Positions 29,464-62,440 of a stretch of DNA of 64,000 nt are shown here, piece by piece (the stretch's first letter is position 1; the number at the start of each line of letters is the position of its first letter). This DNA comes from Mycobacterium sp. 155 (GTDB lineage: Bacteria; Actinomycetota; Actinomycetes; Mycobacteriales; Mycobacteriaceae). The stretch lies in contig NZ_KB892705.1 in NCBI RefSeq assembly GCF_000373905.1, positions 2,623,020-2,687,019 of the forward strand, written 5' to 3'. The translations under genes were made by a program, and so were the position numbers. The notes under the pieces are model-generated. The model was not told where the DNA came from. It saw nothing but the letters and a program-made list of their open reading frames with translations, and did not search any database.

Positions 29464-30015
29464 GTGACACGGCTGAGTTTCAAGCTCTATCTGACAGTAG
29501 GCGCGGCTTGCGGCGCCGCACTGCACCTATATGGCAGCAGCGCGGCGGTCAGTCTCGGAGCCGGAGTATGTGTGGCGGTCGCACTCCTGATAGCGCCCCG
29601 CTTCCTGCTCGGGACCCTGGCCGGAATCACTACCCCCGGTTCGCACGAGGACAAGACTACGGAGATGACTGGACTGGAGTTCGAGGACTACGTGGCGCGC
29701 ATCGCCCGGTCCTGCGGTGTTCCGGTCATCATGACACCCCTCAGCGGGGACTGGGGTGTAGACCTGATCGTCGGGCGCCGGCCCAATCGGCTTGCCGTTC
29801 AATGCAAGCGGCAATCCCGCCCAGTCGGCGCGGGCGCCGTCCAGGAAGTGGTCGCCGGCGCACCGATGCAGGACTGCGCCAAGACCATGGTGGTAACCAA
29901 CCACGAGTTCACGCCTGCCGCACGCAAACTCGCCGAGTTACACGGCTGCGAGCTTGTCGGGGGCGCGGATCTCCCCCGGTTGAAGTCAGTGATCCGGCGG
30001 GCCGTCGCGCAATAG
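29464..30015 (+). CDS. Mrr-type restriction endonuclease-like protein with membrane anchor
   Basis: A 183-residue protein. The first 55 residues contain two hydrophobic segments (FKLYLTVGAACGAALHLYG and AVSLGAGVCVAVALLIAPRFLLGTLAG); the rest is an Mrr-cat PD-(D/E)xK nuclease domain: MTGLEFEDYVARIARSCG, GDWGVDLIVGRRPNRLAVQCKRQ (catalytic D and QxK), then VVAGAPMQDCAKTMVVTNHEFTPAARKLA. Similar domains in methyl-directed Mrr nucleases cut modified DNA; with a membrane anchor the role is open. The GTG start at 29464 is chosen by the domain layout. No methylase gene is adjacent. Confidence 0.85.
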   Translation: MTRLSFKLYLTVGAACGAALHLYGSSAAVSLGAGVCVAVALLIAPRFLLGTLAGITTPGSHEDKTTEMTGLEFEDYVARIARSCGVPVIMTPLSGDWGVDLIVGRRPNRLAVQCKRQSRPVGAGAVQEVVAGAPMQDCAKTMVVTNHEFTPAARKLAELHGCELVGGADLPRLKSVIRRAVAQ

Positions 30016-30052
30016 CCTTCCGGTATCAGTCGATGAGTTCCTCGCAATACAC

Positions 30053-31444
30053 CTAACGAATCGCGGCGCGCACGGCGTCAACGGCAGCGTCGATTTCACT
30101 ACGAGATACCGTCAACGCCGGCCGGAACCGGACGCTGTGAGTACCGCTGGGCAGCATGACGACGTGCTGATCCCACAGTCGACGGATCAGCGCATCACGC
30201 TCGGCGGGAGTCGGCAAGCTGAAAGCACACATCAGTCCACGCCCCCGGGGATCGAGCACCAGCCCCGGGAATTCATGTGCCAGCTGCTGCAACCTGGCTA
30301 GCAGGTACCGACCGGTCGACGCCGCATTGTCCAGCAACTTGTCGCCCTCGAGGACTTCCAGGATGCGCCGCGACCGGACCATGTCGACCAAGTTGCCGCC
30401 CCACGTGGAGTTGATCCGGGAGCTGACGGTGAACACGTTGTCGGCAACCTCATCGATCCTCGTTATATATTGCTCCTCGCGTGCGCCGGTTATATATTGC
30501 TCCTCGCGTGCGCCGGTTATATACCGCTCCTCGCGTGCGAGGCCACCCGCCATGACGCCACACACCTGCGTCTTTTTGCCAAATGCCACCACATCGGGCG
30601 TCACGCCCAATTGCTGGTAGGCCCAGGCAGTTCCGGTGATACCGCACCCGGTCTGCACTTCGTCGAAGACCAGCAGCGCGTCGAACTCGTCGCACAGGTC
30701 CCGCATCGCGGCGAAGAACTGCGGCCGGAAGTGCCGGTCACCGCCCTCGCCCTGGATCGGCTCGGCCAGGAAACAGGCGATATCGTGCGGATCGGCCTCG
30801 AAAGCCGCCCTGGCCTGACGCAACGATTCGGCTTCCAACTCGGCCATGTCGGCACCCGGCCTGATATAGGGAGCGTCGATACGCGGCCAGTCGAACTTCG
30901 GGAAGCGAGCCACCTTGTTGGGGTCGGTGTTGGTCAGCGACAGTGTGTAACCGCTGCGGCCGTGGAAGGCCCCACGCAGATGTAAGACCTTGGTACCCAA
31001 GGCCGGATCGATCCCCCGTGCTTCGTTGTGCCGGCTCTTCCAGTCGAACGCCACCTTGAGGGCGTTCTCGACGGCAAGTGCGCCGCCGTCGACGAAGAAC
31101 AGATGCGGCAATGCGGGATCACCGAGAACTCTGCGGAACGTGTCGATGAAGCGTGCCATCGGGACGCTGTAGATGTCGGAGTTGCTCGGCTTGTTCATCG
31201 CGGCTTGCAGCAGCTCCGCACGGAACGTCGGATCGTCGGCCAGAGCCGGATGGTTCATCCCCAGCGCCGACGACGCGAAGAACGTGAACATGTCCAGATA
31301 CCGCTCACCGGTGGCGGCGTCCACCAGATACGAGCCTGCCGAACGGTCCAGGTCGAGCACAAAGTCGTAGCCGTCAGTCAGGATGCTGCGAGCCAGCACC
31401 TCGCGCACGCGGCCGGGAGTGATGGGTGTCAACACAGCGGTCAT
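30053..31444 (-). CDS. lat: L-lysine epsilon-aminotransferase with in-frame repeat insert
   Basis: A 463-residue class III PLP aminotransferase that converts lysine and 2-oxoglutarate to alpha-aminoadipate semialdehyde (piperideine-6-carboxylate). The PLP Lys is in DVVAFGKKTQVCG (about 290); DEVQTGCG holds the PLP Asp, and NSTWGGNLVDMVR closes the site. It equals Rv3290c except for an insert: after VMAGG come three 9-residue repeats (AREERYITG, AREEQYITG, AREEQYIT, residues 303-328) before IDEVADNVF, absent from the M. tuberculosis protein as I recall it. The insert lies about ten residues past the catalytic Lys, so its effect on activity is uncertain. Confidence 0.95.
   Translation of the reverse strand: MTAVLTPITPGRVREVLARSILTDGYDFVLDLDRSAGSYLVDAATGERYLDMFTFFASSALGMNHPALADDPTFRAELLQAAMNKPSNSDIYSVPMARFIDTFRRVLGDPALPHLFFVDGGALAVENALKVAFDWKSRHNEARGIDPALGTKVLHLRGAFHGRSGYTLSLTNTDPNKVARFPKFDWPRIDAPYIRPGADMAELEAESLRQARAAFEADPHDIACFLAEPIQGEGGDRHFRPQFFAAMRDLCDEFDALLVFDEVQTGCGITGTAWAYQQLGVTPDVVAFGKKTQVCGVMAGGLAREERYITGAREEQYITGAREEQYITRIDEVADNVFTVSSRINSTWGGNLVDMVRSRRILEVLEGDKLLDNAASTGRYLLARLQQLAHEFPGLVLDPRGRGLMCAFSLPTPAERDALIRRLWDQHVVMLPSGTHSVRFRPALTVSRSEIDAAVDAVRAAIR
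30461..30538 (-). repeat. 27-bp tandem repeat (2.9 copies) inside lat
   Basis: Three consecutive 27-bp units, in frame, each starting GCACGCGAGGAG and ending in an AT-rich TATATAACC linker, unusual in this GC-rich DNA. The 19-nt core GGCGCACGCGAGGAGCAAT recurs exactly in pcd at 33170-33223. The outermost unit also contains a palindrome CCTCGCACGCGAGG (30529-30542). Confidence 0.9.
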
Positions 31445-31496
31445 GACACCAGCTTATCGTGATTTTTACGTCTATGCTTATTGCAAACCGTAATAG

Positions 31497-31961
31497 TTAT
31501 GGAATGAAGTTCCTTCCGGTGTAAAATGTCTGCAAGATAACGGTGCTGCGGGTGCGTACGTTGGCCGCGGTCCTGATGCGTTGCAGCAAGTCCTCCAGCG
31601 CCCGCGCTGACGCGACCCGCACCTGCAGGACGTAACTCTCGTCACCGGCCACCGAATGACACGATTCGATTTCGGGGATGTTCTCCAACCGGGCAGGCGC
31701 ATCATCGGGTTGAGACGGATCGAGAGGAGTGATGGCCACGAACGCCGACAGCATGTTGCCCAACGCCTCGGGATTGAGCCGCGCCGAGTATCCGGTCACC
31801 ACGCCACGCGCTTCCAGTCGGCGCACCCGAGCTTGTACCGCCGACACCGACAACCCCGCCACCGCGGCCAGGTGTGCCAGTGTGGCCCGGCCGTCGCCCA
31901 CGAGTTCACGTACCAAGACCCGGTCGATGCCGTCCAGCGGTTGTTCGTCCGGTTCACCCAT
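31497..31961 (-). CDS. lrpA: Lrp/AsnC-family regulator
   Basis: A 154-residue feast/famine regulator equivalent to Rv3291c. The N-terminal HTH is DRVLVRELVGDGRATLAHLAAVAGLSVSAVQARVRRLEARGVVTGYSARL; the C-terminal RAM domain (LSAFVAITPL... IESCHSVAGDESYVLQVRVASARALEDLLQRIR) binds amino acids and oligomerises. In M. tuberculosis LrpA regulates lat, which lies just downstream in the same direction; pcd starts 59 bp away on the other strand, so both are probable targets. Confidence 0.94.
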   Translation of the reverse strand: MGEPDEQPLDGIDRVLVRELVGDGRATLAHLAAVAGLSVSAVQARVRRLEARGVVTGYSARLNPEALGNMLSAFVAITPLDPSQPDDAPARLENIPEIESCHSVAGDESYVLQVRVASARALEDLLQRIRTAANVRTRSTVILQTFYTGRNFIP

Positions 31962-32020
31962 GGCCCGAACTGTAACCCCTTGACCCCGCTCTCATTCCGG
32001 GCAGATCAGAAAGGCGCACG

Positions 32021-33625
32021 ATGACCACGACCGAACGGACTCAGTTGCCCACCGCCGATGACCTGCGCCGTCAAGTGCGGCAAGCCTTCGAGGCCGTCGG
32101 TGCGACGGTCACGCTCGGCCCTCCCGGCGCGCACCTAGCCGGCGTGCCGGCAAGTACGCCCATCACCGGGGACGTGCTGTTCACCATCGCCGAAGACACT
32201 CCCGAACAGGTGGATGCCGCCATAGCCGAAGCCGCACAGGCATTTTCGACCTGGCGCACCACCCCCGCGCCGGTGCGGGGCGCCCTCGTCGGCCGGCTGG
32301 GTGAGTTGCTCGTAGAGCACAACGACGCGTTGGCGACACTGGTCACGATCGAGGCCGGGAAGATCGTCTCGGAGGCCTTGGGCGAGGTGCAGGAGATGAT
32401 CGACGTCTGCCAGTTCGCCGTCGGGCTGTCCCGGCAGCTCTACGGCCGTACCATTGCCTCCGAACGTCCGGGCCATCGACTCATGGAAACCTGGCACCCA
32501 CTGGGTGTGGTCGGTGTCATCACCGCCTTCAATTTCCCCGTCGCGGTGTGGGCATGGAACACCGCGGTTGCGCTCGTGTGTGGTGACACCGTGGTGTGGA
32601 AACCGTCTGAGCTGACACCGCTGACCGCCATCGCCTGTCAGGCTCTGATCGAGCGGGCCGCCGCAGATGTCGGAGCCCCGGCGTCGGTGAGCCGACTGCT
32701 GCTCGGCGGCCGTGAGCTCGGAGAGCGGCTGGTCGACGACCCGCGCGTGGCGCTGGTGAGTGCGACCGGCTCGGTACGGATGGGTCGGGAGGTCGGGCCG
32801 CGGGTGGCGGCCCGGTTCGGCAAGGTCCTACTCGAGCTCGGTGGCAACAATGGGGCGGTGGTCGCTCCGTCGGCCGACCTCGACCTGGCAGTGCGCGCGA
32901 TAGTCTTCTCCGCCGCAGGTACCGCGGGGCAGCGCTGCACCACGCTTCGCCGGCTGATCGTGCACTCGAGCGTCGCGGACGAGCTGGTGACGCGGATCGT
33001 CGCGGCATATCGCAGCCTGCCCGTCGGCGCCCCGGGAAGTGACGGCACGCTCGTCGGGCCGCTCATTCACGCGCGCGCCTACCGCGACATGGTGGGAGCG
33101 CTGGACCAGGCCCGAGCCGACGGTGGTGAGGTGTTCGGCGGCGAGCGCCATAACCTCGGTGACTTGGGCGGACGCGAGGAGCAATCAGGCGGGGGCGCAC
33201 GCGAGGAGCAATCAGGAGAGGGCGCGTTTTACGTGGCGCCCGCGGTGGTACGAATGCCCGCCCAGACGGCCGTGGTACACACCGAGACATTCGCGCCGAT
33301 CCTCTACGTGCTGACCTACGATTCGCTCGACGAGGCCATTGCACTGAACAATGCGGTGCCGCAGGGCCTTTCATCGGCCATCTTCACCACCGATGTGCGC
33401 GAGGCAGAGCGTTTCCTTGCTGCCGACGGCTCCGACTGCGGTATCGCCAACGTCAACATCGGGACGTCCGGCGCCGAGATCGGCGGGGCGTTCGGCGGCG
33501 AGAAGCAGACCGGCGGTGGCCGAGAGTCCGGATCGGACGCCTGGAAAGCTTATATGCGCCGCGCCACCAACACCGTCAACTACTCGTCTGAGCTGCCGCT
33601 GGCCCAGGGCGTGCATTTCGGCTGA
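32021..33625 (+). CDS. pcd: Piperideine-6-carboxylate dehydrogenase with in-frame repeat insert
   Basis: A 534-residue aldehyde dehydrogenase of the ALDH7/Pcd type that oxidises alpha-aminoadipate semialdehyde, the product of Lat, to alpha-aminoadipate. Visible: the NAD site ITAFNFPVAVWAWN and KPSELTPLTA, catalytic E272 in LLELGGNNGAV, catalytic C306 in GQRCTTLRR. Residues 384-402 (GREEQSGGG, AREEQSGEG) form two 9-residue repeats where relatives have a short loop before YVAPAVV. Equivalent to Rv3293. AAAGG precedes the ATG. The repeat shares its DNA core with that in lat. Confidence 0.95.
   Translation: MTTTERTQLPTADDLRRQVRQAFEAVGATVTLGPPGAHLAGVPASTPITGDVLFTIAEDTPEQVDAAIAEAAQAFSTWRTTPAPVRGALVGRLGELLVEHNDALATLVTIEAGKIVSEALGEVQEMIDVCQFAVGLSRQLYGRTIASERPGHRLMETWHPLGVVGVITAFNFPVAVWAWNTAVALVCGDTVVWKPSELTPLTAIACQALIERAAADVGAPASVSRLLLGGRELGERLVDDPRVALVSATGSVRMGREVGPRVAARFGKVLLELGGNNGAVVAPSADLDLAVRAIVFSAAGTAGQRCTTLRRLIVHSSVADELVTRIVAAYRSLPVGAPGSDGTLVGPLIHARAYRDMVGALDQARADGGEVFGGERHNLGDLGGREEQSGGGAREEQSGEGAFYVAPAVVRMPAQTAVVHTETFAPILYVLTYDSLDEAIALNNAVPQGLSSAIFTTDVREAERFLAADGSDCGIANVNIGTSGAEIGGAFGGEKQTGGGRESGSDAWKAYMRRATNTVNYSSELPLAQGVHFG
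33170..33223 (+). repeat. 27-bp tandem repeat (2 copies) inside pcd
   Basis: Two 27-bp units encoding GREEQSGGG and AREEQSGEG. The core GGCGCACGCGAGGAGCAAT equals that of the lat repeat, with the same unit length and reading frame (AREEQ), but a GC-rich linker. The repeats lie in the coding sense of both genes, so they have opposite orientation on the chromosome. Confidence 0.9.
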
Positions 33626-33696
33626 CCAGGCCCCGGCGGCGAATGCGGTGGCGGCCTCATCATCCGTTTCGGCAGAAAGTCCGGTAAGCAGATGGG

Positions 33697-34506
33697 ATGC
33701 AGATCGAAGACCGGGTAGCGATAGTGACCGGTGCCGGCTCGGGTATCGGCCGGGCCGTGGCGCGGGTGTTGAGTGCGGCGGGTACCCGGGTGGTTGTCGG
33801 CGATATCGACGAAACGGGTGCCGCAGAAACCGCGGCGCTCGTTCGCGATTCCGGCGGCTCCGCGGTGGCCACTCGCGCCGACGCCGCGGCAACCGCGGAC
33901 ATCGAGAGTCTCGTCGCGCTGGCCGAAGCCGAGTTCGGGCCGGTCGACATCTATGTCGCCAACGCCGGGATCATGGGCGTGCCCGGCCTGGGCACCGATG
34001 CGGACTGGGATGTCATCCTCGACGTCAACCTGCGAGCGCATATCAGAGCGGCGAACATCGTTGTCCCCCGGTGGCTCTCGCGCGTCGAAGGATATTTCGT
34101 CTCGGTCTCCTCGGCGGCCGGGTTGCTGTCGCAGATCGGCGCGGCCGGGTACACCGTCACCAAGCACGCAGCGGTCGGGTTCGCCGAGTGGCTGGCCATC
34201 ACCTACGGCGACGCCGGTGTCGGGGTGAGTTGTGTGTGCCCGCTTGGGGTTGATACGCCGTTACTCGATGCGGTGCGCGCGGCGGCCGACCCCGACACCC
34301 ACGCCAGCGCCGAAGCCGTGGTGCGGTCCGGCGCAGTGATCACCGCCGAGCAGGTGGCTACGGCCACCGTCGACGCCATCCGCGCCGATCAGTTCCTGGT
34401 GTTACCGCACCCTGAAGTGCTCGACATGTACCGCCGCAAAGGCAGCGACTACGACCAGTGGATCTCGGGAATGCGCCGCTACCAGAGGACACTTCGCGGT
34501 ATCTAA
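33697..34506 (+). CDS. Short-chain dehydrogenase/reductase
   Basis: A 269-residue classical SDR. The cofactor loop is TGAGSGIGRAVARV, with an acidic D after beta2 (VVVGDIDE) favouring NAD(H); NAG appears as VANAGIMG; catalytic Ser in VSVSSAAGLL and YTVTKHA gives the Tyr-x3-Lys. The substrate is unknown. It follows pcd by 71 bp on the same strand and may be co-transcribed. Confidence 0.93.
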   Translation: MQIEDRVAIVTGAGSGIGRAVARVLSAAGTRVVVGDIDETGAAETAALVRDSGGSAVATRADAAATADIESLVALAEAEFGPVDIYVANAGIMGVPGLGTDADWDVILDVNLRAHIRAANIVVPRWLSRVEGYFVSVSSAAGLLSQIGAAGYTVTKHAAVGFAEWLAITYGDAGVGVSCVCPLGVDTPLLDAVRAAADPDTHASAEAVVRSGAVITAEQVATATVDAIRADQFLVLPHPEVLDMYRRKGSDYDQWISGMRRYQRTLRGI

Positions 34507-38209: not shown

Positions 38210-41200
38210 ATGGCCCCACCCGACCCGCTGACCCGGTTCAGCCCCCTGACCCGGGAGTGGTTTGCGACGGCGTTCCCGGCGCCGACGGCCGCGCAGGCGC
38301 AGGCCTGGCTTGCCATCGCCGAGGGCAACAACACCCTGGTCATCGCACCGACGGGATCGGGCAAGACGCTGGCGGCCTTTTTGTGGGCGATCGACCGGCT
38401 GGCCTTCGAGCAACAGGCCGGCACCACGGGCACCGGTACTCGGGTGCTCTACGTGTCCCCGCTCAAGGCGTTGGCCGTCGACGTCGAGCGCAACCTGCGC
38501 ACGCCGCTGACCGGGATCACCCGCGTCGCCGAACGCCAGGGCCTGCCCGCGCCGTCGATCAGCGTCGGCCTGCGTTCCGGGGACACCCCGCCCAACCAGC
38601 GCCGCGCCCTGATCGCCAAACCGCCCGACATCCTGATCACCACCCCCGAATCGCTGTTTCTGATGCTCACCTCGGCGGCCCGGGAGACGCTGGCCACCGT
38701 GCAGACCGTCATCGTCGATGAGGTGCATGCCGTGGCCGCCACCAAACGCGGTGCGCACCTGGCACTTTCACTGGAACGGCTGGACCAGTTGTTGGACAAG
38801 CCCGCCCAGCGGATCGGGCTCTCGGCGACCGTGCGGCCACCGGAAGAAGTGGCGCGATTCCTGTCCGGTGCGGCCCCGATCACTATCGTCGCTCCCCCGG
38901 CCAGCAAGACCTTCGACCTGACGGTGCAGGTCCCGGTGCCGGATATGGCCCATCTGGACAACAACAGCATCTGGCCCGATGTCGAGGAGCGCATCGTCGA
39001 CCTCATCGAGGCGCACCGCTCCTCGATCGTGTTCGCCAACTCCCGGCGCCTGGCCGAACGGCTCACCTCCAGGCTCAACGAGATCCACGCCGAACGCGCT
39101 GGCATCGAACTGACACTCGACCGCAACCCGCAGGTCGGTGGCGGTGCTCCGGCGCAACTGATGGCCAGCGGTCAGGCCAATGGCGCACCTGCACTGCTGG
39201 CCCGGGCCCACCACGGATCGGTGAGCAAGGAGCAGCGCGCTCAGGTCGAAGACGACCTCAAGAGCGGGCGGCTGCACGCCGTGGTCGCGACCTCCAGCCT
39301 GGAGCTCGGTATCGACATGGGCGCGGTGGATCTGGTGATCCAGGTGGAGGCGCCGCCGTCGGTGGCCAGCGGCCTGCAGCGCATCGGCCGCGCCGGCCAC
39401 CAGGTCGGCGAGATCTCCCAAGGAGTGCTGTTCCCGAAACACCGCACCGACCTGATCGGCTGTGCGGTGACGGTCCAGCGGATGCTGGCCGGTGAGATCG
39501 AAACCATGCGCGTCCCGGCCAACCCGCTCGATGTGCTGGCCCAGCACACCGTCGCAGCAGCCGCGCTCGAACCGCTCGACGCCGAGGGCTGGTTCGACGC
39601 GGTACGGCGCAGCGCGCCGTTCGCCACGCTGCCGCGCAGCGCGTTCGAAGCGACGCTGGACCTGCTGTCAGGCAAGTATCCGTCCACCGAGTTCGCCGAG
39701 CTACGGCCCCGGCTGATCTACGACCGCGACACCGGCACACTGACGGCACGTCCCGGCGCCCAGCGGTTGGCGGTGACCAGCGGCGGGGCCATCCCGGATC
39801 GCGGACTGTTCACCGTATACCTGGCCACCGATTCCGAAAAGCCGTCCCGGGTAGGCGAACTCGATGAAACGATGGTCTATGAATCGCGTCCCGGCGACGT
39901 CATCTCGCTCGGCGCCACCAGTTGGCGCATCACCGAGATCACCCACGACCGCGTGCTGGTCATCCCGGCGCCGGGCCAGCCCGCTCGGCTGCCCTTCTGG
40001 CAGGGCGACAGCGTGGGCCGCCCGGTAGAACTGGGCGCGGCGGTCGGTGCGTTTACCGGCGAACTCACCGCACTCGATCGAGGATCGTTCGACGAACGTT
40101 GCCAGACAATGGGTTTCGACGGCTATGCAACGGACAATTTGTATCAGCTGCTGCGCGACCAGAGGGAGGCCACCGGTATCGTCCCCAGCGACACCTCGCT
40201 GGTGGTCGAGCGGTTCCGCGACGAGCTGGGCGACTGGCGGGTGATCCTGCACTCGCCGTACGGGTTGCGGGTACACGGTCCGCTGGCGCTGGCGGTCGGT
40301 CGCCGGCTGAGCGACCGATACGGCATCGACGAGAAGCCGACGGCGTCGGACGACGGCATCATCGTGCGGTTACCCGACGGAGGCGAAAACCCGCCCGGTG
40401 CCGATCTTTTCGTCTTCGATGCCGATGAGATCGATTCGATTGTCACCGCCGAGGTGGGCGGGTCAGCACTGTTCGCTTCCCGGTTCCGGGAATGTGCCGC
40501 ACGGGCCCTGCTGCTGCCGAGACGCCACCCCGGGAAACGGTCGCCGCTGTGGCATCAGCGCCAGCGCGCCGCCCAACTCCTCGACATCGCGCGCAAGTAC
40601 CCCGATTTCCCGATCGTGCTCGAGGCGGTCCGGGAATGTCTGCAGGACGTCTACGACGTGCCGGCGCTGACCGAGCTCATGCGCAAGGTGGCCCAGCGCC
40701 GGCTTCGGGTAGTCGATGTGGAGACCGCTACGCCGTCGCCGTTCGCCGCTTCTCTGCTGTTCGGCTACGTCGGCGCGTTCATGTACGAAGGTGACAGTCC
40801 GCTGGCCGAACGCCGCGCTGCCGCTTTGGCACTGGACACCGTGCTGCTTTCCGAGCTGCTGGGTCGGGTCGAACTGCGGGAACTGCTCGACCCTGCGGTG
40901 ATCGCCTCGACCGCCGCTCAGCTACAGCATCTGGCCCCGGATCGGGCCGCACGCGATGCCGAGGGGGTCGCCGACCTGCTGCGGCTGCTCGGCCCGCTCA
41001 CCGAGGCCGAGATCGCCCAACGCTGCACCGCCGAGGTCATCGGCGGTTGGCTCGACGGTCTGCATGCCGCCAAACGGGCACTGCCGGTGAGCTTCGCCGG
41101 TCAGGCTTGGTGGGTGGCTGTCGAGGACATCGGTCTGCTTCGCGATGGTGTCGGAGTGCCAGTTCCGATCGGTGTGCCCGCCGCGTTCACCGAATCGGTG

Positions 41201-61645: not shown

Positions 61646-62440
61646 GTGACCGATCCGGACACCGCAAGCTACGCGTCCGCAGAAGCCATCGCCGAGCGCA
61701 CCGGCGTCGACCACCACGACGTCGCCGTGGTGCTGGGCTCAGGCTGGGCGCCCGCGATCGCCGAACTCGGCGACCCGGTCGCCGTCGTGCCGATGGCCGA
61801 GCTACCCGGATTCACCCCGCCGAGCGCCATCGGACACGGCGGACAGGTGCTGTCGGTCCGCATCGGCGCCCACCGAGTCCTGGTGCTGGTCGGCCGTATC
61901 CACGCCTATGAGGGACACGATCTGCGGCACGTCGTGCACCCGGTGCGCACGTCCGTCGCGACCGGGGTGCACACCGTGGTGCTGACCAATGCCGCCGGTG
62001 GCCTGCGGGCCGACTACCAGGTCGGTCAACCCGTGCTGATCAGTGACCATCTCAACCTCACCGCACGGTCACCGCTGGTCGGGGCGCAGTTCGTCGACCT
62101 GGTCGACGCCTACTCGCCGCGCCTGCGTGATATCGCCCGTGAGATCGACCCGACGCTGACCGACGGCATCTACGCGGGCCTGCCCGGACCGCACTACGAG
62201 ACCCCGGCCGAGATCCGGATGCTGCGCACGCTCGGCGCCGATCTGGTTGGCATGTCGACCGTGCACGAGACAATCGCGGCCAGGGCCGCTGGAGCCCAGG
62301 TTCTGGGCGTATCGCTGGTGACCAACCTGGCTGCGGGGATGACGGGCCAGCCGCTCAGCCACGAAGAAGTGCTGGAGGCAGGCCGTCAGTGCGCAACCCG
62401 AATGGGCTCCCTGCTGGCCGGAGTGATCGCGCGTCTCTGA
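61646..62440 (+). CDS. deoD: Purine nucleoside phosphorylase
   Basis: A 264-residue trimeric-type PNP equivalent to Rv3307, cleaving inosine and guanosine with phosphate in purine salvage. Visible: phosphate site [28 protein letters not shown], base pocket [33 protein letters not shown] and VTNLAAGM. The GTG at 61646 matches the relative's start. Its 3' end overlaps the convergent AbrB-type gene by 55 bp. Confidence 0.95.

What the first reader, a model, noticed from the sequence alone, without database searches (positions are those of the whole stretch)
30461..33223. Same 27-bp in-frame repeat family inserted in both lat and pcd
Seen directly: lat carries three and pcd two tandem 27-bp units, in phase with the reading frame, encoding AREEQ-YITG and AREEQ-SGxG. 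The 19-nt core GGCGCACGCGAGGAGCAAT is identical. The genes lie on opposite strands, so the repeat is inverted on the chromosome but always in coding sense and frame. Lat makes and Pcd consumes the same unstable intermediate (piperideine-6-carboxylate). Possibilities: a small selfish repeat tolerated in loops, like Rickettsia palindromic elements, with gene conversion between neighbours; or a shared peptide that brings the two enzymes together. The AT-rich linker in lat argues for foreign origin.
Basis: partly seen in the sequence, partly recalled or inferred. Interest (0 to 1): 0.85.

Follow-up and report, generated by a model that had tools for sequence, protein, structure and literature searches.

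The report
Tiny ribosome-site repeat spreading through mycobacteria
The short repeat in these two genes is one of dozens of copies of a tiny 26-28-base DNA repeat scattered through environmental mycobacterial genomes, found inside genes in frame and just before gene starts, where it may bring its own ribosome-binding site.

Summary
In detail: lat carries three and pcd two in-frame 27-bp units of one family. The interpretation mostly does not. The core GCGSACGYGAGGAGC occurs 99 times in this genome (reversed-pattern control 0) and 147 times in a relative about 94% identical over lat-pcd. It is a nucleotide-level repeat: it lies in all three frames (22/12/7 of 41), sense, antisense and between genes, so it is no Lat-Pcd docking peptide. 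Inside ORFs the unit spacing is a multiple of 3 in 71 of 71 intervals, between genes in 56 of 99 (partly circular, since a frameshift would end the ORF). Between genes, 28 of 87 arrays end just before a plausible start codon (15 other windows: 1-8). The core contains the Shine-Dalgarno-like GAGGAG, and in eight arrays 26-bp units chain into 9-codon ORFs overlapping the next start by 4 nt, as described for MIRUs, though the unit is much smaller (sequences not compared). Occupied sites repeat adjacent target sequence to a variable extent. Best reading: a MIRU-like miniature mobile minisatellite. How it moves is unknown.

The parts
30053..31444 (-). lat, L-lysine 6-aminotransferase (463 aa), host gene of the first array
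   Evidence: 2cin, E 5.5e-223
30514..30540 (-). lat unit 1 (most diverged core, TCGCACGCGAGGAGC + tail ggtatataaccg)
30487..30513 (-). lat unit 2 (GCGCACGCGAGGAGC + aatatataaccg)
30460..30486 (-). lat unit 3 (GCGCACGCGAGGAGC + aatatataacga)
32021..33625 (+). pcd, piperideine-6-carboxylate / aminoadipate-semialdehyde dehydrogenase (534 aa), host gene of the second array
   Evidence: 6rtr, E 1.2e-218
33168..33194 (+). pcd unit 1 (GCGGACGCGAGGAGC + aatcaggcgggg)
33195..33221 (+). pcd unit 2 (GCGCACGCGAGGAGC + aatcaggagagg)
61668..61690 (-). unoccupied site (GATGGCTTCTGCGGACGCGTAGC) that carries two units in relative G103 and units in four other relatives; empty in most of 30 rows, but emptiness here could be a secondary loss

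Best explanation
The units in lat and pcd are two of 67 arrays or solo units found in this genome of a dispersed 26-28-bp mycobacterial repeat. SHOWN: each unit is a near-invariant 15-nt core (GCGSACGYGAGGAGC) plus a tail of about 12 nt that is A-rich at first and then locus-specific. Matched arrays of two related genomes sit at the same sites, often with different numbers of recognisable units. Empty sites exist, and at occupied ones the unit end repeats the sequence just 5' of the array to a variable extent. INFERRED: a duplicative process adds one unit of about 27 bp at a GC-rich site, copying the core from elsewhere and part of the target; the unit then multiplies and is homogenised by slippage or unequal exchange. 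Copies are kept where they do least harm: (1) inside ORFs as multiples of 3, encoding short hydrophilic insets (DARS-, REEQ- or RTRG-type, by frame); (2) at translation starts, where GAGGAG could act as a Shine-Dalgarno site and 26-bp units can form 9-codon ORFs ending in a 4-nt overlap with the next start; (3) in unconstrained intergenic DNA. The Lat and Pcd peptides are by-products, not a docking module.
For: 99 exact cores against 0 for the reversed pattern; 67 against 1 for the 19-mer at up to 3 mismatches. Patchy by species: at least 5 copies in 6 of the 59 other same-genus genomes; 147 in G103. Periods 27/26/28/24 = 166/49/21/6 of 245 intervals (cores 22-34 nt apart only). Multiples of 3: sense 61 of 61, antisense 10 of 10, intergenic 56 of 99, arrays across a gene edge 35 of 61. 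Frames 22/12/7. Start enrichment 28 of 87 against 1-8 in 15 other windows; 15 of 25 26-bp intervals at starts form 9-codon ORFs with a -4 overlap. Recognisable unit number differs in 22 of 33 matched arrays of G000 and G103. Empty/occupied comparisons: lat, pcd, window 61.68 kb and L294. Graded 5'-flank/unit-end similarity, z 11.6 at position 1, near background by 9-12. Hosts include genes with Era-like, GuaB-like and AftA domains, which should have to stay functional (essentiality recalled).
Against: No mobilising enzyme was found. The repeated target stretch is variable, unlike a classical transposase. The unit stays near 27 nt even between genes, which selection on frame does not explain. 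The multiple-of-3 result inside ORFs is partly circular: an out-of-frame array would end the ORF and be classed as edge or intergenic. A check on flank coding frames gives 33 of 33 intervals in multiples of 3 where both flanks share one open frame, but 44 arrays have same-strand coding flanks in different frames, and gene junctions and broken genes cannot be told apart there (seven of these 44 show no stop). At two mismatches the core is less specific (230 matches against 96 reversed), so some solo units may be chance. Sense orientation is favoured (62:18), cause unknown. The lat site changes state at least 4 times on a tree: recurrent gain and precise loss are not separated. Initiation from GAGGAG is inferred from sequence only; 10 of 25 26-bp intervals at starts do not form the -4 chain. 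Gene calls come from my own codon-usage scorer.
Confidence: 0.7

Rival explanations
1. Shared peptide tag: AREEQ units in Lat and Pcd were selected to bring the two enzymes of the piperideine-6-carboxylate step together.
For: Both inserts are in the same frame and encode AREEQ. A +9/+18/+27/+36-aa insert at the same residue of Lat recurs in 28 of 105 parsed homologues of the best 120.
Against: The same repeat is read in two other frames, antisense and between genes. Pcd is occupied in 2 of 27 aligned genomes. REEQ- or REEH-type insets also occur in an Era-like GTPase and a sarcosine-oxidase-like protein.
Confidence: 0.03
2. Pure minisatellite: chance core-like sequences expanded locally by replication slippage, with no mobility; the common core reflects a slippage-prone or selected motif.
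For: Arrays differ by whole units between relatives and their units agree with each other. Some empty sites already contain part of the core (GCGCACGC or GCGGACGC).
Against: GAGGAGC is absent at the empty sites and present with the first unit. Sites lacking most of the core also carry units (lat, pcd). A 15-nt core common to more than 60 loci is hard to get from slippage alone.
Confidence: 0.13
3. Functional DNA site: the core is a binding site for a chromosome-organising or recombination protein and is distributed by selection.
For: Near-invariant core with a variable tail; dispersed around the whole chromosome.
Against: Copy number runs from 0 to 147 between species of one genus. No consistent strand bias by replichore if the contig starts at the origin, 8+/19- and 17+/23- (the overall minus-strand excess is unexplained). 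In the closest relative 22 of 33 matched arrays differ in unit number.
Confidence: 0.08
4. Member of the REP/RAYT or MITE class, moved by a transposase acting on hairpin or inverted-repeat ends.
For: Dispersed, short, with no enzyme of its own, patchy.
Against: No fold above shuffles (mean z -0.01, 25 sampled arrays, mononucleotide shuffles). Y1_Tnp (PF01797) is found in 1 of 11 copy-rich genomes against 5 of 14 others. No fixed target duplication. Other transposase families were not searched.
Confidence: 0.06

Closest known systems
MIRU (mycobacterial interspersed repetitive units)
   Same: Short direct repeats in mycobacteria, tandem and dispersed; thought mobile; placed at start codons so that an ORF in the repeat is coupled to the next gene with -4 nt spacing (passage of PMC12548453).
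   Different: MIRUs are given as 40-100 bp at 41 sites in M. tuberculosis H37Rv (passage of PMC2734929); this unit is 26-28 bp and often lies inside ORFs. The papers differ on MIRU range: 'many mycobacteria' (PMC12548453 passage) against only M. leprae and the M. tuberculosis complex (PMC4213456 passage). The MIRU sequence itself was not compared here, so a distant relation is open.
Rickettsia palindromic elements (RPE)
   Same: Short repeats inserted in frame in many unrelated genes (passage of PMC10969869).
   Different: RPEs are about 150 bp and each encodes a conserved peptide (same passage); palindromic by name. This one is 27 bp, shows no fold above shuffles, is tandem, and is read in three frames.
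REP/REPIN elements with RAYT transposases
   Same: Dispersed chromosomal repeats of 20-40 bp (abstract of PMC3733652 as listed).
   Different: No hairpin, intragenic as well as extragenic, Y1_Tnp absent from 10 of 11 copy-rich genomes.

Membership tests
MIRU | Unit length 40-100 bp | tested here: not met
   26-28 bp in 236 of 245 intervals (which joined only cores 22-34 nt apart); MIRU length from PMC2734929 passage
MIRU | Inserted at start codons with an internal ORF overlapping the next start by 4 nt | tested here: inconclusive
   Met by a subset only: 15 of 25 26-bp intervals at starts, in 8 arrays; many arrays lie elsewhere
MIRU | Sequence similarity to the MIRU consensus | not tested
   No MIRU sequence was available from the passages seen; GAGGAG in MIRU is recalled only
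Rickettsia palindromic element | Palindromic or strongly folded | tested here: not met
   Mean fold z -0.01 over 25 sampled arrays
Rickettsia palindromic element | In-frame insertion in unrelated genes | tested here: met
   61 of 61 sense genic intervals are multiples of 3 (partly circular); diverse hosts among 10 proteins scanned
Rickettsia palindromic element | One conserved encoded peptide | tested here: not met
   Frames 22/12/7
REP/RAYT | Associated Y1-type (RAYT) transposase in the genome | tested here: not met
   PF01797 absent in 10 of 11 copy-rich genomes, this one included
Transposon/MITE | Fixed-length target-site duplication | tested here: not met
   Graded similarity fading over 9-12 nt in 137 arrays
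Known RNA family (Rfam 15) | Match above a gathering score | tested here: not met
   None in window 29800-34000; other loci not scanned

The most novel reading that the evidence does not exclude
A new class of mobile element whose cargo is essentially a ribosome-binding site. A dedicated, perhaps template-copying process joins about 12 nt (GAGGAGCAnnnn) to a copy of about 15 nt of the target, making a unit of about 27 nt. Because the module supplies its own Shine-Dalgarno site, it can land on start codons harmlessly, and because its length is near 27 it can land in ORFs. In four clean first insertions (L338, L303, L305, L307) the new part is 12 nt and the repeated part 15 nt, 14 or 15 of 15 identical.
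Probability: 0.25. Interest if true: 0.88.

Novelty: new variant of a known kind. Interest (0 to 1): 0.66.

Why it matters
If right, environmental mycobacteria carry a far smaller analogue of MIRUs that is also common inside enzymes, including proteins with the domains of Era, GuaB and AftA. It gives dozens of natural before/after pairs for two open questions: how very short repeats with no evident transposase spread, and how proteins and start sites absorb repeated insertions. The arrays differ in unit number between close relatives, so they could serve as typing markers, and as a natural test of whether a repeated Shine-Dalgarno-like site tunes expression. It also shows that a striking shared peptide in two pathway neighbours can be a by-product of DNA-level spread.

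Tried and rejected
Lat-Pcd shared-peptide and neighbour gene-conversion ideas: rejected. Copy number as a clade property: not tested, no genus tree was made. RAYT/Y1 transposase link: not supported; no other transposase family was searched. Virus origin: no exact tandem match in IMG/VR, which is no test of diverged phages; the phage and plasmid collections were not searched. RNA family: none in 29800-34000. A structure model of Lat was too poor to place the inset (mean pLDDT 50.9) and is not used. A first tree was wrong because half of the loci were on the other strand; it was redone with all rows turned one way. A simple fixed target-site duplication is not supported by the graded profile; the z-scores of the 3'-side control in that call were unusable and only its fractions are quoted. 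Literature (10 searches) gave no description of this repeat in their listings of the open-licence library; that is not proof that none is in print. Papers seen: passages only of PMC12548453, PMC2734929, PMC4213456, PMC4128351, PMC10969869 and PMC2635572; PMC2229807 searched for four terms without hits; all others only in search listings.

Exact repeats of the same flank were dropped before counting. Two of the 80 are Streptomyces; their arrays are inside the counts (5 of 177) and may be; they were dropped (91 to 87; 177 to 172). My note gave 18 of about 25 coupled units and 24 occupied Lat homologues; recounting the outputs gives 15 of 25 and 28 of 105. In one search, 35 of 68 G000 arrays found no G103 counterpart in the stretches fetched, so 22 of 33 covers only matched ones, and 'units' there are cores with up to 2 mismatches, so decayed units count as absent. 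One search listed only part of its hits; the missing reverse-strand places were recovered in part, so 67 may be an undercount, while some one-mismatch solo units may be chance. Some of the most distant rows of the L294 comparison (L356-L362, about 68-72% identical) may be paralogues.
Full report
OBSERVATION. The window is G000:C1:2623020-2687019 of a 4.61-Mb, two-contig genome that is mycobacterial by its relatives. lat (30053-31444, -) holds three 27-bp units and pcd (32021-33625, +) two. The 19-nt core is found four times in the window with up to 3 mismatches (three exact, one with one mismatch) against 0.07 expected. Both proteins align to solved relatives, Lat to Lat 2cin (the inset falls between chain residues 310 and 312) and Pcd to 6rtr. 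That the Lat inset lies about ten residues after the PLP lysine is recalled, not tested.

GENOME-WIDE FAMILY. The 19-mer at up to three mismatches has 67 matches in the genome against 1 for the reversed pattern. The core GCGSACGYGAGGAGC has 99 exact matches against 0; at up to two mismatches specificity drops (230 against 96). I fetched 60 stretches and with the window found 67 arrays or solo units at up to one mismatch. In one search, 21 of 60 same-genus genomes (this one included) have at least one exact core, but only 6 of the 59 others have five or more (22, 11, 41, 23, 6, 10); 7 of 40 same-order genomes of other genera have 1-3, about the level of the reversed control. A relative, G103 (94% identical over lat-pcd), has 147. 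IMG/VR gave none.

ANATOMY. In 137 distinct tandem arrays (cores 22-34 nt apart) the period is 27 in 166, 26 in 49, 28 in 21, 24 in 6 and other in 3 of 245 intervals. In one 27-bp unit from each of 99 arrays the core positions are nearly invariant apart from S at 4 and Y at 8, and the 12-nt tail starts A-rich (72, 58, 58, 48, 46% A) and is then locus-specific. Adjacent tails in one array are 0.74 identical, tails of different arrays 0.34. There is no special fold (mean z -0.01 over 25 sampled arrays) and no Rfam family in 29800-34000.

CONTEXT. With a codon-usage ORF scorer trained on this genome, 177 arrays or solo units from G000 (67), G103 (29) and external loci (81) fall as: inside a gene in sense 41, in sense near a gene end 21, antisense inside a gene 18, intergenic 72, overlapping a gene edge 25. 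Unit spacing is a multiple of 3 in 61 of 61 sense and 10 of 10 antisense intervals inside genes, in 56 of 99 intergenic ones and in 35 of 61 across gene edges. This fits a filter on frame, but is partly circular, because an out-of-frame array would end the ORF. A check that uses the coding frame of the two flanks instead (172 arrays, Streptomyces dropped) finds 40 arrays with one open frame on both sides (33 sense, 7 antisense), all 33 intervals multiples of 3; 5 with the frame kept but a stop inside; 44 with same-strand flanks in different frames (38 sense, 6 antisense; 37 with a stop inside, 7 open), where gene junctions and broken genes cannot be told apart; 13 with flanks on different strands; 70 unclear. 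The core begins in codon position 1, 2 or 3 in 22, 12 and 7 of the 41 internal sense cases (offsets 0, 1, 2 as printed), giving DARS-, REEQ- or RTRG-type peptides. Ten of the 23 internal host entries of this genome were scanned: they include proteins with domains of GuaB, Era (GTPase plus KH), AftA, CydB, M17 aminopeptidase, sarcosine oxidase alpha, HlyIII, an AMP-binding enzyme and an NRPS; one had no Pfam match. A common peptide function is therefore implausible, and the Lat/Pcd coincidence needs no explanation: 5 gaps below 3 kb against 2.9 expected (P = 0.17).

START SITES. Of 87 mycobacterial intergenic or start-edge arrays, 28 have a plausible coding start within about 13 nt after the last core; 15 other 14-nt windows around them give 1-8. 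The core's GAGGAG then lies near Shine-Dalgarno distance, often as GAGGAGCaaaATG. Among start arrays the spacing is 26 in 25, 27 in 27 and 28 in 4 intervals; in the others 26 is 17 of 92. In eight arrays (15 of the 25 26-bp intervals) each unit holds a start codon opening a 9-codon ORF whose stop overlaps the next unit's start by 4 nt. Ten of the 25 do not (five of these are one array, L052). This is the arrangement described for MIRUs, which 'insert themselves at start codons' with -4 nt spacing (PMC12548453, passage only).

INSERTION AND TURNOVER. In lat, 9 of 27 aligned genomes are occupied (one of them degenerate, L242), with 1 to 4 units, the rest empty at the same junction. In pcd only this genome and G103 are occupied, one has a fragment and 24 are without (3 of 30 rows did not pass the filter in each case). 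Of the best 120 Lat homologues, 105 could be parsed: 28 carry +9 (22), +18 (3), +27 (1) or +36 (2) residues at the same point and 77 do not. Two sites empty in this genome and occupied in G103 were compared in 30 rows each: window 61.68 kb (occupied in 5 of 30, remnant-like in one more) and L294 (occupied in 4 of 30, remnant-like in one more; some distant rows may be paralogues). Both are empty in most rows, so empty is the likely ancestral state, though this genome's own empty state at 61.68 kb could be a loss. The cleanest pair is L338 against empty L334: 12 new nt (GAGGAGCAAAAA) plus a 15-nt repeat of the preceding target (14 of 15 identical), sum 27. L303, L305 and L307 at the other site have the same 12 + 15 form (15, 14 and 14 of 15). 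Across 137 arrays the 5' flank resembles the unit end strongly next to the core (0.77 against 0.37 expected) and falls to near background by about 9-12 nt; 3' of the array mainly the first base resembles the core start (0.66 against 0.30), with little beyond. This argues against a fixed target-site duplication and for copying with a variable junction. On a tree of the lat-pcd region the lat site changes state at least 4-5 times; recurrent insertion and precise loss cannot be separated. Of 33 matched arrays in G000 and G103, 22 differ in the number of recognisable units; 35 more found no counterpart in the stretches fetched.

MECHANISM. Shown: dispersal, three-frame and two-strand placement, start-site enrichment, unit turnover, repetition of target sequence to a variable extent. 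Inferred: that frame is selected; that the core is copied from another locus by template switching or repair at GC-rich sites; that arrays grow by slippage; that GAGGAG initiates translation. Unexplained: why the unit is close to 27 nt even where no frame must be kept, and why sense exceeds antisense inside genes (62 to 18).

COMPARISON. It works like a MIRU at start sites but is not filed as one: MIRUs are described as 40-100 bp (PMC2734929 passage) and the sequences were not compared. On MIRU range the passages differ: 'many mycobacteria' (PMC12548453) against M. leprae and the M. tuberculosis complex only (PMC4213456). It behaves like RPEs inside ORFs but shows no fold and has no single peptide (PMC10969869 passage). 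A RAYT-type transposase domain is absent from 10 of 11 copy-rich genomes and present in 5 of 14 others.

VERDICT. A real, well supported miniature repeat family, apparently undescribed as far as 10 searches of an open-licence library show: a new variant of a known kind.

Noticed in passing
window 61668-61690 (-): An unoccupied site of the same repeat family, occupied in G103 and four other relatives.
   Followed up: yes
window 39592-39643: Another tandem repeat of period 27 with a different-looking unit (1.9 copies, 80% match).
   Followed up: no
window 31497-31961 (-): 154-aa ORF between lat and pcd that looks like an Lrp/AsnC-type regulator (by eye, no family search).
   Followed up: no
L353 and L336/L338/L343: The same site of a homologous gene carries units in G181 as well as in G103, G149 and G253, suggesting insertion hot spots or repeated precise loss.
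   Followed up: partly
L219 (G393): lat site empty inside a clade whose other members are occupied, as if a whole array had been lost precisely.
   Followed up: partly
L199: Three solo units within about 1 kb, two in one predicted 360-aa ORF and one in a neighbouring ORF on the other strand.
   Followed up: no
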